This document shows, one piece after another, positions 32,572 through 39,968 of a stretch of 64,000 nt of DNA. The translations under genes were made by a program, and so were the position numbers. The stretch covers positions 7,192,001-7,256,000 of the forward strand of contig NZ_JAGGMR010000001.1 in assembly GCF_017875645.1 (NCBI RefSeq), written 5' to 3'. The stretch comes from Nocardia goodfellowii. GTDB taxonomy: Bacteria > Actinomycetota > Actinomycetes > Mycobacteriales > Mycobacteriaceae. The number at the start of each line of letters is the position of its first letter. Within the stretch, counting starts at the first letter, position 1. Below the pieces are notes generated by a model. It worked only from the letters and a program-made list of their open reading frames with translations. It was not told where the DNA came from and made no database searches.

Positions 32572-34170
32572 TCACTCGCCGCGCGCGAAGTCCGCGAGCA
32601 GACCTGGCACCGCCGCATCGAACCCGGCGACATCCAACATCCCCGCATCCGACGGATCGGCGATCGTGAAGTTCGTCGCGGTCATACCGACCACCACGAG
32701 CTTCGCCTCGGGGTTCACCTGCTCCCGGTACTGCCGGAGCGCCTGGTGCGGATGGATCTGGCCCGCCCAGGTCTCGTTGTCGGTGTACACCGTGAACACG
32801 TCGACCTCGAGCTTGCGCTCCAGCGCGTACCGCATCGGCAGCGAGCAGTCGGTCCCGCCGAACGGCAGACCCGCGGTCCGGTTCAGCACATCGTCGAGCC
32901 GTTGCCGCGGGCCGATCGGCAGCGGCGTCAGCGCGCTGTCGCGGTAGTTGTTGGTTCCCGCCGAGCTGAATCCGACGATCTCGTAGTCGGTTTCGGTGCT
33001 CGCGGTCACCATCGCCAGGGCGGCGGATGCCTCCCGCGCGCTGATCGGCAGTCCGGAAATCCCCATCGTCATCGACCCGGACACGTCCAGCGCCAGCAGG
33101 TGCCGCTGTCCGGTCGGTTCAACGGTGTCGAACGCGGCGTAGAAGGCAGCGTCGAGCGCGTCGACGATGGGACGTGCAGGCTGCCAGGTGCTTTCGCCAC
33201 GCGCGCTGCGACCCGACGCATAGGTGCGCAACGCGACCAGCACCGACACCGGATGCACCCGCGCCTTGCGCAGCCGCACCGGATCGACGAGTTGGGCTGC
33301 GACAGCACCGGTCCGAGCGCCGAGCGGCGAAAGCAACCCGAGCCGAGTCAGCCGCGGCAGTTGTCGCAGCAGTGCCGTCTGCGGAATCCCGTTGTCCAGC
33401 AGCGCTTCCCATACCGCAGTCTCGTTCAGCGCGGCATCGGGCAGCATCTCCCAGGACAGCCGGTACTCTCGCACCAGCTCCGGCACCTCGCGCACCGGCG
33501 CGGCCTGCGCCCGCTGAAATCCTTCGACGAACCGCAGCCCATCCAGGGAACCACCGCGTCCACAGATCCAATCGAACAGCCGCGCGCGGTCGTCCTCCGT
33601 CGTCACCGGATGCGACAGTCGCAGCAGGTCGCGATGCGACCAGCCTTCCCGCTGCCGGTACTTCACCACCTGATAGGCCAGGTCATCGATCGACTTCGCG
33701 GTGTACCAAGCGCCGACCGCCCGCCGCAGCCCGCGACCCCAGCCGCGGAACTGCTCGATATACCGCGCGAACAGGAACAGATGAGTGCCGGTGCGCGCGA
33801 CCAGCGGCAGCGCCTCGAGGGCGGTGCGCCGCCCGTCCTCGTCACCGAGCGACGCCGCGGCGGCGAGCGCGAACAGCGCCGGATTCTGCTTCGGCGCCCG
33901 GCCGGAAGTGGAGATCTCTACCACCTCACGAACCAGCTCGGCGGTTCGGCTCCGCGCGAAATCGACTACCACTGCAGCGTTTTCCTTCGCCAGCTCCTGC
34001 GCTCGCACGTAATAGGTGCCGCCGTCGACCCCCAGAACCAGGAACCTGCGCAGCCGAACCTCGGGCGTCACCTCGAAGGTGAATCCGCCCGCGTTGTTGC
34101 GAACCTGCCGCGGATCGGTCTGGGTGCGCTGCGCGGTCGCGCGGGCGTTGATGCCTGCCAGTGCGTCCAT
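32572..34170 (-). CDS. rsr: Ro60 orthologue Rsr (TROVE plus vWA domain)
   Basis: 532 residues. The N-terminal TROVE HEAT-repeat ring spans about residues 20-330 (FEVTPEVRLRRFLVLGVDGG, YYVRAQELAKENA, YRQREGWSHRDLLRLSHP). The C-terminal von Willebrand A domain has the MIDAS motif DVSGSM. Bacterial Rsr binds small Y RNAs and, in Deinococcus, tethers polynucleotide phosphorylase for structured-RNA decay. ATG 34170 follows GAGGA and starts the conserved region. Three Y-RNA-like genes lie directly upstream on the same strand or nearby, which is the known arrangement of bacterial Ro60 loci. Confidence 0.92.
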   Translation of the reverse strand: MDALAGINARATAQRTQTDPRQVRNNAGGFTFEVTPEVRLRRFLVLGVDGGTYYVRAQELAKENAAVVVDFARSRTAELVREVVEISTSGRAPKQNPALFALAAAASLGDEDGRRTALEALPLVARTGTHLFLFARYIEQFRGWGRGLRRAVGAWYTAKSIDDLAYQVVKYRQREGWSHRDLLRLSHPVTTEDDRARLFDWICGRGGSLDGLRFVEGFQRAQAAPVREVPELVREYRLSWEMLPDAALNETAVWEALLDNGIPQTALLRQLPRLTRLGLLSPLGARTGAVAAQLVDPVRLRKARVHPVSVLVALRTYASGRSARGESTWQPARPIVDALDAAFYAAFDTVEPTGQRHLLALDVSGSMTMGISGLPISAREASAALAMVTASTETDYEIVGFSSAGTNNYRDSALTPLPIGPRQRLDDVLNRTAGLPFGGTDCSLPMRYALERKLEVDVFTVYTDNETWAGQIHPHQALRQYREQVNPEAKLVVVGMTATNFTIADPSDAGMLDVAGFDAAVPGLLADFARGE

Positions 34171-34220: not shown

Positions 34221-34340
34221 TGGGCGAGAAGGACAGTCGTGGATTGCCGACCGGACAAGACACCGACTTGCGTCGATGCCGTCAGGAGTTGAACCTGTGA
34301 ACCGGGTAACCGATCAGCGCCGGCCCGTCCTTCTCGCCCA
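34221..34340 (-). ncRNA. Y-RNA-like gene 3 (no D arm), adjacent to rsr
   Basis: Ends pair perfectly over 14 bp (34221-34234 with 34327-34340), the long terminal stem expected for a Y RNA. Inside is a T-arm-like hairpin, CAGG-TTCAACT-CCTG, at 34283-34297, and a GGTCGGCAATCC segment resembling the GGTCGGCATCAC block of the neighbouring Y RNA. The 5' part shares GGGCCGG and ATCGGTTACCC with the other two. There is no TAGCTC D arm and no capped acceptor stem, so tRNA mimicry is partial. It ends about 50 bases before the rsr start. Comparative evidence is good; expression is unproven. Confidence 0.6.
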
Positions 34341-34500
34341 GGCAATCCGGGGGTGGGCGGACATGTGATGCCGACCGACGTACCGCTCTGCCAGTTGAGC
34401 TACAACGACAACGCCGTTGGCGGGACTCGAACCCGCAACCTGTCCATTAGAAGTGGATAACCGACCGAACTCCGGCCCGCCCACCCCCGTCTTGCCTTAC
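34341..34500 (-). ncRNA. Y RNA 1 with circularly permuted tRNA-like module
   Basis: Read on the minus strand. Terminal stem: 34341-34345 with 34492-34496 (GGCAA/TTGCC) and 34349-34360 with 34477-34488 (12 bp), with a 3x3 internal loop. Between them the tRNA parts occur in permuted order: an anticodon-like arm (34443-34457, stem TCCA/TGGA, loop CTTCTAA), a T arm (34420-34436, GCGGG-TTCGAGT-CCCGC), a 7-bp acceptor-like stem (34413-34419 with 34403-34409) capped by three bases, then a D arm (34385-34402, TAGCTC to GAGC). Bacterial Y RNAs near Ro60 are known to mimic tRNA, which fits rsr being next door. Confidence 0.8.
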
Positions 34501-36130: not shown

Positions 36131-36291
36131 GGCAAGCCGAAGGCGGGCGGGCATGGTGATGTCGACCGTCTGTACCGCTCTGCCGGTTGAGCTACATCAG
36201 CCTTCGCTGCTGGCGGGACTCGAACCCGCATCTGTCCATTGCGAGTGGATAACCGATCGACTCCGGCCCGCACACCCTCGATTTGCCGTGC
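36131..36291 (-). ncRNA. Y RNA 2 with circularly permuted tRNA-like module
   Basis: Paralogue of Y RNA 1 about 1.8 kb away. Terminal stem: 36131-36135 with 36283-36287 (GGCAA/TTGCC) and 36139-36152 with 36266-36279 (13 of 14 paired, including compensatory G-T pairs relative to Y RNA 1). The modules follow the same permuted order: anticodon-like arm (36235-36249, stem TCCA/TGGA, loop CTCGCAA), T arm (36213-36229), acceptor-like stem (36206-36212 with 36195-36201, one mismatch) capped by GAAG, and D arm (36177-36194). The bases change but the pairing is kept, which strongly supports a real structured RNA. Confidence 0.8.
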
Positions 36292-36296
36292 TCGAG

Positions 36297-36341
36297 AAAC
36301 TGTAGATCGTTCCGAGCTGGACCTGCCACTGAATTTTCACC
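36297..36341 (-). promoter_or_regulatory. conserved upstream element / promoter of Y RNA 2
   Basis: Same block as upstream of Y RNA 1: AATTCAGTGGC and CTCGGAACGATCTACAGTTT, with TACAGT at 36299-36304 (minus strand) as a likely -10. Confidence 0.6.
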
Positions 36342-36572
36342 GCACTGCGGCGGCAGCGCATATGCCTTCGCAGGCGTATCCCCGAACTCGAAAGGAGTCG
36401 ACCGTCGCAGCGCCGTAGAACACATGGCCTGTCAGCCCACCCAGCACGCCTGCCCCTGGACAGTAGACGTGCTCGCCTGCGGCATGTAGCTGTGAATCTG
36501 CCGATGCAGCTTGTGCGACGGCGGCTCCCGCCAGATCGCAGGAGGCTGCGGGGATCTCCGATATCGACCTGT

Positions 36573-38009: not shown

Positions 38010-39968
38010 GTGACACTTCGACCGTACCGCTCGACCGCCGACGCCATCGCCCGCTTTCCGTCAGAGGAAGAGCTACGGAAGGTTCCCCTCGAGGATCGGC
38101 TGTCCGCGATCATCGTTGCCGCAAGAGGGCAAGGGGCCGGCCCATCGGAACGGAAGTCGTGGGACGTGAGCCTGCCGATTCTCGCGAAGCTCTTGGTCGA
38201 GGCGAATCTCGGCCAAGTCGAAATGCTGATCGAGTATCCGATGCCGGAAACCGACGCGCGCGCCGATGTCGTACTCGCGGGGATACATCCAGAAACCGGT
38301 GCCGACAGCTATCTGGTGGTCGAGCTGAAACAGTGGGACGAAGCGGTGCCGGTGTGGGACACCGATCATCTGGTCCAGGGGCCCAAAACGCACGGGATCA
38401 AAGTCCATCCAGTCGCCCAGGTACGCGGCTACTGCACCTACCTACTGCAATACGTGGAGGTCCTGCGGACACCGCCGGCCACGTTGTATGGGATAGCCTA
38501 TCTGCACAACGCTACCGAAGCTTCCGTTCGCAAGTTGCGTACCGCAGCTCCAGATGACCTGGGCCGGTTGTTCACCGGCGAGGAGCGTGAGGCACTCAAA
38601 GAGTACCTGCGCGGAAAACTCTCCACCGAATCGGGTGCCCCAGCAGGAAAACGGTTGCAGGATAGCCCAATTCAACCGAGGCAACAACTCACACAGATCG
38701 TAACCGCGGGACTTCGCGGAGAATCTCATTACTCGCTGATCGGCAATCAACTACTCGCCTACGAACATGTCGTCAACCAGGTCAAATTAGCATTCGAGGA
38801 AGACCAAAAGAAGGTGATCATCGTCACGGGCGGCCCCGGCACCGGAAAAAGCTTGATCGCCGCCTCGTTGGTCATGGACCTCCACGAAGAGTACAGGGTT
38901 CGTTTCTCGAGCGGATCCATTACCATCACCGAGACCATGCGAAGATTCGCCAGCAAGGTGAAACCTGGGCTCAAGAATTTATTTACATACTACCGGGATT
39001 TCTCTGGGGCTAAACCGAACTCGGTGGACGTACTGCTTTGCGATGAGGCGCACCGGGTCCGGAAGACGTCGACCTATCGTCGGCAAAAGAAGGAACTCCG
39101 GACCGATCGTCCACAGCTGGACGAATTGATGTCTGCAGCGCGGGTCCCGGTGTTCTTCCTCGATGAGCACCAAGTCATCCGCCCTGACGAGGTGGGGACG
39201 CTGGCAACGATCATGGCCCAGGCGGCCCGGAAGGGATACTCGGTACAGCACATCGAGCTCGACAAACAGTTCCGCAGCAGAGGAAGCGCGGCGTACCAGG
39301 ACTGGGTGTTGCGGTTGGTCGGCTTACGAAGCGGTCCACCGGCTCTGTGGCAGGGAGACGACTTCGACGTACGGGTTGCGAGCTCACCACAGGAGATGGA
39401 AACTTTCCTTCGCGAAAAGAATCGCCGCGGGTACACAGCGCGAATAGCGGCGGGGTACTGCTGGCCATGGAGCGGAACCCGACCCGACGGTACGCTCGTA
39501 CACGACGTGAAGATCGATGACTGGTCGATGCCGTGGAACAAGAAAGACCCCAAAGTGGGTGGCGAAGCACCACCTTCCGCACTGTGGGCAACCGATCCTC
39601 GTGGCTTCGGCCAAATCGGATGCATCTATACGGCGCAGGGACTCGAGTATGACTGGGCCGGAGTAATTCTAGGAGAAGACATTGTATTCGACGGCCGCTA
39701 TCTAGCGGTGCGCAGGGAATTCAATCAAGATCCGGCACTCCGAGGAACGAAGAAAGAGCCATATTCCGACGCGCAGATAGAACGGGTCGTGCGCAACATT
39801 TACCACGTTCTATTGACTCGAGGAATGTTGGGCGTGGTCATTTATGCAGTCGACCCGGCTACGAGAAAGTTCATTTCGCAGTTGGCGGGCCCGCTCGGTT
39901 CGATCGGCCCGGCTACCTTCGACGCTCAGCCGGGAGTCGACATCGCGTGGCGACCGAAGGCTGACTGA
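38010..39968 (+). CDS. PD-(D/E)XK-like nuclease fused to DUF2075 superfamily 1 helicase
   Basis: 652 residues. The N-terminal domain shows a nuclease-like D-x(18)-ExK pattern: D86 in ARADVVLAG and E105-x-K107 in YLVVELKQW, after MLIEYPMPET. The helicase part has Walker A VTGGPGTGKS (about 272-281), Walker B LLCDEAHR (about 342-349), a KQFRSRG motif, and IYTAQGLEYDWAGVILG, which are features of DUF2075 proteins. Such proteins are frequent in defence islands; together with Wadjet this suggests anti-phage or anti-plasmid function (inference). GTG 38010 is preceded by GGGGG. Confidence 0.82.
   Translation: MTLRPYRSTADAIARFPSEEELRKVPLEDRLSAIIVAARGQGAGPSERKSWDVSLPILAKLLVEANLGQVEMLIEYPMPETDARADVVLAGIHPETGADSYLVVELKQWDEAVPVWDTDHLVQGPKTHGIKVHPVAQVRGYCTYLLQYVEVLRTPPATLYGIAYLHNATEASVRKLRTAAPDDLGRLFTGEEREALKEYLRGKLSTESGAPAGKRLQDSPIQPRQQLTQIVTAGLRGESHYSLIGNQLLAYEHVVNQVKLAFEEDQKKVIIVTGGPGTGKSLIAASLVMDLHEEYRVRFSSGSITITETMRRFASKVKPGLKNLFTYYRDFSGAKPNSVDVLLCDEAHRVRKTSTYRRQKKELRTDRPQLDELMSAARVPVFFLDEHQVIRPDEVGTLATIMAQAARKGYSVQHIELDKQFRSRGSAAYQDWVLRLVGLRSGPPALWQGDDFDVRVASSPQEMETFLREKNRRGYTARIAAGYCWPWSGTRPDGTLVHDVKIDDWSMPWNKKDPKVGGEAPPSALWATDPRGFGQIGCIYTAQGLEYDWAGVILGEDIVFDGRYLAVRREFNQDPALRGTKKEPYSDAQIERVVRNIYHVLLTRGMLGVVIYAVDPATRKFISQLAGPLGSIGPATFDAQPGVDIAWRPKAD

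What the first reader, a model, noticed from the sequence alone, without database searches (positions are those of the whole stretch)
34341..34500. Y RNA 1: circularly permuted tRNA-like module next to a Ro60 gene
On the minus strand the 3' half of a tRNA-like fold (anticodon-like arm, T arm, acceptor 3' strand) precedes the 5' half (acceptor 5' strand, D arm), the two halves being joined by a 3-base cap. A 12-bp plus 5-bp terminal stem encloses the module. Established: bacterial Y RNAs near Ro60 (rsr) often mimic tRNA. The rsr gene is 170 bases downstream. A standard tRNA finder would miss or mislabel it.
Basis: partly seen in the sequence, partly recalled or inferred. Interest (0 to 1): 0.85.

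Follow-up and report, generated by a model that had tools for sequence, protein, structure and literature searches.

The report
Y RNA mimicking a whole tRNA
Next to a Ro60-like gene this Nocardia-like bacterium encodes a small RNA that copies a transfer RNA with its two halves swapped; the swap is already known in such RNAs, but this form also keeps a complete anticodon arm, which related bacteria and phages share.

Summary
On the minus strand, 34341-34496, a 5-bp plus 12-bp stem encloses a circularly permuted tRNA module, 170 bases upstream of an rsr (Ro60) gene. Rfam's YrlA model matches it below its curated cut-off. It is a bacterial Y RNA of the YrlA kind; tRNA mimicry and permutation of YrlA are already in print.

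What differs: in canonical YrlA (Rfam consensus) the Ro-binding stem stands where the anticodon loop would be. Here a complete anticodon arm is kept. Its 3' strand (39-43) pairs partly with bases after the D arm (27', 28') and partly with bases before the loop (29-31), so the Ro stem enters at a nick in the anticodon stem. Of 209 permuted modules collected, 102 have this form ("type II") and 60 the YrlA form. All five pairs covary. The 7-base loop often equals a real tRNA anticodon loop; here it equals the host's tRNA-Arg(UCU) loop. Phages carry the form beside Ro-like genes. Rfam reports no YrlA at its cut-off in 53 loci tested.

The arm's function is inferred: mimicry towards a protein that reads anticodon arms. 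Single-sequence energy folding does not favour the tRNA-like form, and the key Y RNA papers could not be read.

The parts
34341..34496 (-). Y RNA 1 (156 nt), whole element
   Evidence: Rfam YrlA 41.8 bits, E 3e-7, at 34352-34477 (cut-off 69); model R1 130.5 bits at 34341-34493 (Y1 is one of the rows R1 was built from)
34492..34496 (-). 5-bp terminal stem, 5' strand GGCAA
34341..34345 (-). 5-bp terminal stem, 3' strand UUGCC
34477..34488 (-). 12-bp stem, 5' strand
   Evidence: pair probability 0.98-1.0
34349..34360 (-). 12-bp stem, 3' strand
34458..34478 (-). conserved 5' strand GGGCCGGAG...UCGGUCGGUUA, likely Ro60-binding region; 34461-34468 pairs with 34371-34378
   Evidence: conserved and covarying in 33 rows; Ro60 binding inferred from the family, not tested
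34371..34378 (-). 3' strand UCGGUCGG of the upper Ro helix
34443..34457 (-). anticodon-like hairpin; loop CUUCUAA at 34447-34453, triplet UCU at 34449-34451
   Evidence: loop equals the host's tRNA-Arg(UCU) loop
34442..34443 (-). positions 43 and 42, pairing with 27' and 28'
   Evidence: 12 and 19 pairing-preserving double changes on the tree
34382..34383 (-). positions 28' (34382) and 27' (34383) after the D arm; position 26 is 34384
34437..34441 (-). variable loop AGGUU
34420..34436 (-). T arm GCGGG-UUCGAGU-CCCGC
34403..34419 (-). acceptor stem closed by cap GUU (34410-34412)
   Evidence: 7 of 7 pairs with changes on both sides among 33 rows
34385..34400 (-). D arm GCUC-AACUGGCA-GAGC
   Evidence: invariant pairs in 33 rows, so no covariation evidence for this helix
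34221..34340 (-). Y RNA 2: reduced second Y RNA abutting Y RNA 1; Ro-like motif, T-arm-like hairpin, closed acceptor-like stem, no D arm seen
   Evidence: z = -5.1, 0 of 200 shuffles; R1 35.4 bits, E 1.8e-6
36131..36284 (-). Y RNA 3: diverged copy of Y RNA 1, loop CUCGCAA, variable loop one base shorter
   Evidence: (114 bits); Rfam YrlA 30.8 bits over part of the model
32572..34170 (-). rsr, Ro60 orthologue (532 aa from the ATG at 34170)
   Evidence: TROVE and vWA_Ro60; length; start inferred

Best explanation
34341-34496 (minus) is a bacterial Y RNA that partners the Ro60 protein encoded just downstream. Its long terminal stem carries the Ro60-binding site; the enclosed module is a complete tRNA mimic, circularly permuted and closed at the acceptor end, so it cannot be charged with an amino acid. 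Unlike canonical YrlA, where the Ro stem stands in place of the anticodon loop, the Ro stem here joins at a nick in the 5' strand of the anticodon stem (between 28 and 29), leaving a free 7-base anticodon loop. Most likely the module is the effector-binding arm of the Ro-Y RNA particle, and the anticodon arm extends the mimicry so that a protein that grips tRNAs by that arm (a nuclease, a modification enzyme or another tRNA-binding factor) is recruited or titrated. Architecture and conservation are shown by sequence comparison; Ro60 binding follows from the family; recruitment or decoy action through the anticodon arm is inference. The confidence given is for Y RNA identity plus the split anticodon arm; for the inferred role of the arm I would give about 0.4.
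For: Ro60 gene next door, the only TROVE gene found in the genome. Rfam YrlA match, model end to end, E 3e-7. Pairing kept and covarying in 33 rows. Unbiased register test: of all loop lengths 3-12 and registers, the 7-base loop at the canonical tRNA register is commonest, 104 of 209 modules at 3 bp (next register 61; shuffled mean 14.6) and 57 of 209 at 4 bp (next 34; shuffled mean 5.8). On a tree built without the tested columns, pairing-preserving double changes number 12, 19, 10, 16, 20 for the five anticodon-stem pairs, against 0-2 for nine wrong registers. Loop composition U33 in 95 of 102, A/G37 in 90, A38 in 79. 58 of 102 loops are identical to a loop among 307 ARAGORN tRNAs, column-shuffled mean 29.6, maximum 41 of 1000; distinct loops 20 of 58 against 10.3; with this genome's own 48 loops 49 of 102 against 21.4, distinct 13 of 58 against 6.0, reached by 5 of 2000 shuffles. 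In phage loci found through the Ro protein, 9 of 15 upstream modules are type II with different stems.
Against: The energy model prefers another fold of Y1 (-78.8 against -60.0 kcal/mol); pair probabilities are 0.13-0.15 for the hairpin, 0.00 for 42-28' and 43-27', 0.21-0.23 for the acceptor, 0.12-0.13 for the D arm; tRNA tertiary contacts are not in that model. In 22 of 209 modules both forms fit and in 25 neither. In Y1 itself 27'-31' could also pair with 39-43 at 4 of 5 positions. The three hairpin pairs define the type II class, so their 100% pairing is by construction, and the assignment took the best of several variable-loop lengths. Other registers than the canonical one also exceed shuffles. 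D-arm pairs do not vary. No transcript evidence was available.
Confidence: 0.85

Rival explanations
1. It is an ordinary YrlA Y RNA in which 39-43 pairs with 27'-31' after the D arm as in type I, and the extra hairpin is only a spacer or part of the Ro-binding region, with no tRNA mimicry of its own.
For: 60 of 209 modules are type I and 22 fit both; Y1 can form 4 of 5 type I pairs; CCA/UGG is often conserved as sequence.
Against: The hairpin pairs change on both sides with pairing kept, 10, 16 and 20 branches, against 0-2 when 39-41 is set against 29'-31' in the type II rows. Loop length and register are those of a tRNA, U33 and a purine at 37 are kept, and loops equal real anticodon loops more often than column shuffles. 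In the named-phage type II modules the bases 29'-31' do not pair (inn 0 or 1 of 3).
Confidence: 0.1
2. It is a circularly permuted tRNA gene whose transcript is circularised and processed into a working tRNA-Arg(UCU).
For: Order of halves and a genuine UCU loop; ARAGORN labels related modules as tRNAs.
Against: The acceptor strands are joined by 3 bases and pair with each other, so no free CCA end; a 17-bp outer stem encloses the module; the triplet varies widely among relatives; the genome has its own tRNA-Arg(UCU); the element sits beside rsr in related loci.
Confidence: 0.03
3. It is a chance or degenerate product of neighbouring tRNA genes (3' half of one, 5' half of the next).
For: Tandem tRNA pairs do match the central part of the model, and 2 of the 209 modules are such pairs.
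Against: No tRNA gene in the window; the acceptor strands and the enclosing stem covary. Both tandem cases fall in the ambiguous class, none in type II. Tandem tRNAs remain a possible evolutionary source of the permuted order; not tested.
Confidence: 0.01

Closest known systems
YrlA (Rfam RF02553; Salmonella YrlA, PDB 6CU1)
   Same: Terminal stem, T arm, closed acceptor stem and D arm in the same permuted order, with near-identical T and D arm sequence; gene near rsr (review PMC8394870, passages).
   Different: About 11 extra bases before the variable loop form an anticodon hairpin; the anticodon stem is split instead of running into the Ro stem; scores 41.8 bits against a cut-off of 69.
Mycobacterium smegmatis Yrl RNA (Chen et al. 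2014; known here only through PMC4726728, passages)
   Same: An actinobacterial Y RNA reported to bind Rsr by its lower stem. Mycolicibacterium relatives in my set (L054, L065) are type II.
   Different: I could not read the paper, so I cannot say whether an anticodon arm was drawn there; this limits any claim of priority.
Deinococcus radiodurans Y RNA in the Ro60-PNPase particle (RYPER)
   Same: Ro60-bound stem and an effector-binding side (PMC4726728 and PMC8394870, passages).
   Different: No anticodon arm known to me (recalled); PNPase tethering was not tested here.
Circularly permuted tRNA genes of algae and archaea
   Same: 3' half before 5' half.
   Different: Those give free working tRNAs (recalled; review PMC3978253 seen only in the listing). 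Here the acceptor end is closed and an outer stem encloses the module.

Membership tests
Bacterial Y RNA, YrlA class | Gene close to an rsr (Ro60) gene | tested here: met
   62 of 81 rsr sources (80 named loci plus the window) hold a permuted module by my filters
Bacterial Y RNA, YrlA class | Long stem between 5' and 3' ends with a conserved Ro-binding region | tested here: met
   protein binding itself not tested
Bacterial Y RNA, YrlA class | tRNA-like module with T arm, closed acceptor and D arm in permuted order | tested here: met
Bacterial Y RNA, YrlA class | Rfam RF02553 at the curated cut-off | tested here: not met
   41.8 bits against 69, E 3e-7; also no YrlA at the cut-off in 53 further loci. 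A cut-off is not a biological feature, so I still file it as a variant
Bacterial Y RNA, YrlA class | Anticodon stem formed by 27'-31' with 39-43 and running into the Ro stem | tested here: not met
   Split stem, type II; hence 'variant', not 'canonical YrlA'
Bacterial Y RNA, YrlA class | Transcribed and bound by Rsr | not testable with these tools
   -
tRNA gene (permuted) | Free 3' acceptor end able to carry CCA | tested here: not met
   Acceptor strands joined by a 3-base cap
tRNA gene (permuted) | Recognised as a tRNA by a standard finder or by Rfam RF00005 at its cut-off | tested here: not met
   ARAGORN 0 genes; RF00005 27.1 bits against 29, though ARAGORN does call some relatives

The most novel reading that the evidence does not exclude
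Type II Y RNAs are Ro-anchored anticodon-arm decoys: by keeping real tRNA anticodon loops on a molecule that cannot be charged, the Ro particle captures or blocks enzymes that cut or read tRNA anticodon arms. Phages that carry such Y RNAs, often in arrays, with their own Ro gene would use them against tRNA-cutting defences.
Probability: 0.2. Interest if true: 0.88.

Novelty: new variant of a known kind. Interest (0 to 1): 0.6.

Why it matters
What the tRNA-like arm of bacterial Y RNAs does is open. A form that keeps a full, often genuine, anticodon loop narrows the search to proteins that contact the anticodon arm. It makes a published suggestion testable: Hughes et al. [quoted passage not shown] Practically, these RNAs fall below Rfam's cut-off, and some are labelled as tRNAs, in at least one deposited phage genome too.

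Tried and rejected
Counting genomes from the class-wide and genus-wide model searches (345 of 394 genomes with a match; 86 of 150) was rejected: many partial hits (model positions 36-111) are neighbouring tRNA genes; of the loci fetched those with such hits that I checked mostly carry adjacent ARAGORN tRNAs. Two of the 209 modules are tandem tRNA-Asn pairs.

Single-sequence folding does not give the tRNA-like form; I rely on comparison and say so.

A preference for U36-A37-A38 looked striking in the pattern-matching modules of the 18 viral contigs, but loops of phages found through the Ro protein (AUUGCAA, AUUGAAA, CUGCAAA and others) do not share it; not claimed.

A tblastn test for rsr in short whole-genome loci (46 of 138 loci) was set aside as too insensitive for divergent Ro proteins: TROVE searches find rsr in 20 of 20 and 24 of 24 genomes, all chosen because they had model hits. 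RtcB exists in this genome about 280 kb away, so rsr is not in an rtcBA operon here. Plasmids: one weak hit. No promoter was assigned; the upstream block shared by Y1 and Y3 is only noted.

Full report
What is there. On the minus strand 34341-34496 holds a 156-nt element. From 5' to 3': a 5-bp and a 12-bp outer helix; a conserved strand GGGCCGGAG...UCGGUCGGUUA whose UCGGUCGG pairs with its counterpart; an anticodon-like hairpin with loop CUUCUAA; variable loop AGGUU; a T arm; acceptor 3' strand, cap GUU, acceptor 5' strand; UA; a D arm; and the return strands. The gene downstream is a Ro60 orthologue, the only TROVE gene found in the genome; relatives suggest that it starts at 34170. Between them lies a second, reduced Y RNA that abuts the first (34221-34340), and at 36131-36284 a diverged copy of the first. 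A fourth element with 64.9 bits lies elsewhere in the genome, away from the only rsr.

Is it a Y RNA? At curated cut-offs Rfam finds nothing in the window. With a permissive threshold YrlA (RF02553) matches end to end of its model at 41.8 bits, E 3e-7, against a cut-off of 69; its consensus has T arm, closed acceptor and D arm in the same order. Chen 2014, Wang 2018 and the 2018 and 2020 reviews are not held. A review (PMC8394870, passages) says that YrlA has a long terminal stem and a domain like the D, T and acceptor arms, is modified by DusA and TruB, and forms with Rsr and PNPase a degradation machine. [quoted passage not shown] smegmatis. Bohdan et al. 2024 (PMC11472068, passages) call the Y RNA-tRNA match circularly permuted. 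So the permutation is known.

What differs. Among the 80 rsr loci plus the window, 62 of 81 sources hold a permuted module by my filters; 40 of the 81 hold a type II or ambiguous one, 33 a clear type II. Two architectures appear. In type I, bases 27'-31' after the D arm pair with 39-43 and the Ro stem takes the place of the anticodon loop, as in YrlA. In type II, 39-43 is still one strand, but 43 and 42 pair with 27' and 28' after the D arm, while 41, 40 and 39 pair with 29, 30 and 31 from the other side, leaving 7 loop bases. That is a 5-bp stem, a 7-base loop and a variable loop of 5 (83 of 102), 4 (16) or 6 bases (3). The Ro stem thus enters at a nick in the 5' strand of the anticodon stem.

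Tests. (a) In a 33-row alignment (9 of 42 candidate rows left out) the named structure is 95.9% paired; 26 of 36 pairs have changes on both sides; 0 of 500 shuffles are as high; slid versions are 38-46% paired. (b) 209 distinct modules, found by T arm, closed acceptor, D arm, a Ro-like motif and an outer helix but not by the anticodon arm, divide into 102 type II, 60 type I, 22 that fit both and 25 that fit neither; two of the ambiguous ones are tandem tRNA pairs. (c) Over all loop lengths 3-12 and registers, the 7-base loop at the canonical register is commonest: 104 of 209 at 3 bp (next 61, shuffled mean 14.6) and 57 of 209 at 4 bp (next 34, shuffled mean 5.8); some other registers also exceed shuffles. 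(d) On a tree of the 102 type II modules built without the tested columns, pairing-preserving double changes number 12, 19, 10, 16 and 20 for the five pairs, against 0-2 for nine wrong registers. The three hairpin pairs define the class, so their 100% pairing is by construction. (e) The loop is tRNA-like: U33 in 95 of 102, A or G at 37 in 90, A38 in 79. 58 of 102 loops are identical to a loop among 307 ARAGORN tRNAs (uncurated), against 29.6 (maximum 41) with shuffled columns; counting each loop once, 20 of 58 against 10.3 (maximum 19). With this genome's own tRNAs only, 49 of 102 against 21.4, and 13 of 58 against 6.0, reached by 5 of 2000 shuffles. Y1's loop equals the host's tRNA-Arg(UCU) loop; Y3's loop CUCGCAA matched none in the set.

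Against it. The energy model prefers another fold of Y1 by almost 19 kcal/mol and gives the hairpin a probability of 0.13-0.15 and the 42-28' and 43-27' pairs about 0. tRNA tertiary contacts are not in that model, but without probing this stands as evidence against. Y1 can also form 4 of 5 type I pairs.

Where else. Armatimonadetes (L068) and Eremiobacterota (L081) MAGs show the type II form. A pattern that itself asks for the hairpin found 18 viral contigs, several of them near-identical; 13 of the 18 hold two to five model hits, and 13 of the 18 stretches encode an Rsr relative. In annotated phages 341 of 50,697 records encode an Rsr relative. I looked at 12 of these loci. Upstream of the gene the scan finds 15 permuted modules, of which 9, from 7 of the 12 loci, have the full type II form with different 5' stems (CCA, CUC, UCC, CCU, CUU); three loci show no upstream module, though two of these have strong model hits downstream of the gene. 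In prophiGD43A-5 the type II Y RNA is annotated as tRNA-Thr(tgt) (model hit at L294:2036-2190). In 53 bacterial and phage loci Rfam reports no YrlA at its cut-off (20, 20 and 13 loci). A survey of mycobacteria (PMC9569102, passages) lists yrlA among ncRNAs predicted in only some mycobacteria.

How it may work. Shown: architecture and conservation. From the family: Rsr binds the stem, and the module is the effector side. Inferred: the anticodon arm serves a protein that reads that arm. Triplets vary while U33 and a purine at 37 stay, which argues for shape rather than codon reading. Hughes et al. 2020 (PMC7790460, passages) report that Salmonella YrlA is not cut by the SOS-induced anticodon nuclease and suggest it may inhibit it. 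A form with a real loop is a better candidate for that role, or a substrate.

Literature limits. Eight searches of the held library gave no paper that, in its listing or in the passages I read, describes an anticodon arm in a Y RNA. The main papers on bacterial Y RNAs were not readable, and M. smegmatis Y RNA is in print, so priority is not claimed.

Noticed in passing
window 34221-34340 (-): A second, reduced Y RNA with no gap after Y RNA 1 and about 50 bases before the rsr start: Ro-like motif, T-arm-like hairpin and closed acceptor-like stem, no D arm seen. In some relatives (L003, L014, L067) a second module near rsr has a D arm of another kind.
   Followed up: partly
window 36131-36370 (-): Y RNA 3 is a diverged copy of Y RNA 1 that includes the upstream DNA; the block CGGAACGATCTACAGTT upstream is identical in both, perhaps a promoter.
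   Followed up: partly
L132:2862-3021 (-) = G000:C1:5645861-5646020: A fourth Y RNA of type I (64.9 bits) far from the only rsr of the genome; by my reading of the ORFs between a dehydrogenase-like gene and urease accessory-like genes, not tested by family search.
   Followed up: partly
L276-L293: Viral contigs with arrays of up to five Y RNA hits with different loops, most beside an Rsr gene.
   Followed up: partly
L294:2040-2118 (MW584167.1): A deposited prophage genome annotates a type II Y RNA as tRNA-Thr(tgt), upstream of a Ro-like gene; a BrnT-like toxin and antitoxin pair is annotated just before it.
   Followed up: no
L300:2179-2387 (NC_042040.1): Rhodococcus phage Trina has a 209-base 'tRNA-OTHER' pseudogene just upstream of its Ro gene, overlapping model hits; perhaps Y RNAs.
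   Followed up: no
L094:1501-1661 (-): A type II Y RNA model hit (79 bits) in a gap of a cluster of 15 tRNA genes.
   Followed up: no
L116-L119, L122-L124: Neighbouring tRNA genes imitate the permuted module and match model positions 36-111; a trap for such searches and a possible source of the permuted order.
   Followed up: partly
window 38010-39968 (+): A gene with a Schlafen group 3 DNA/RNA helicase domain (PF09848) about 4 kb from the rsr start.
   Followed up: no
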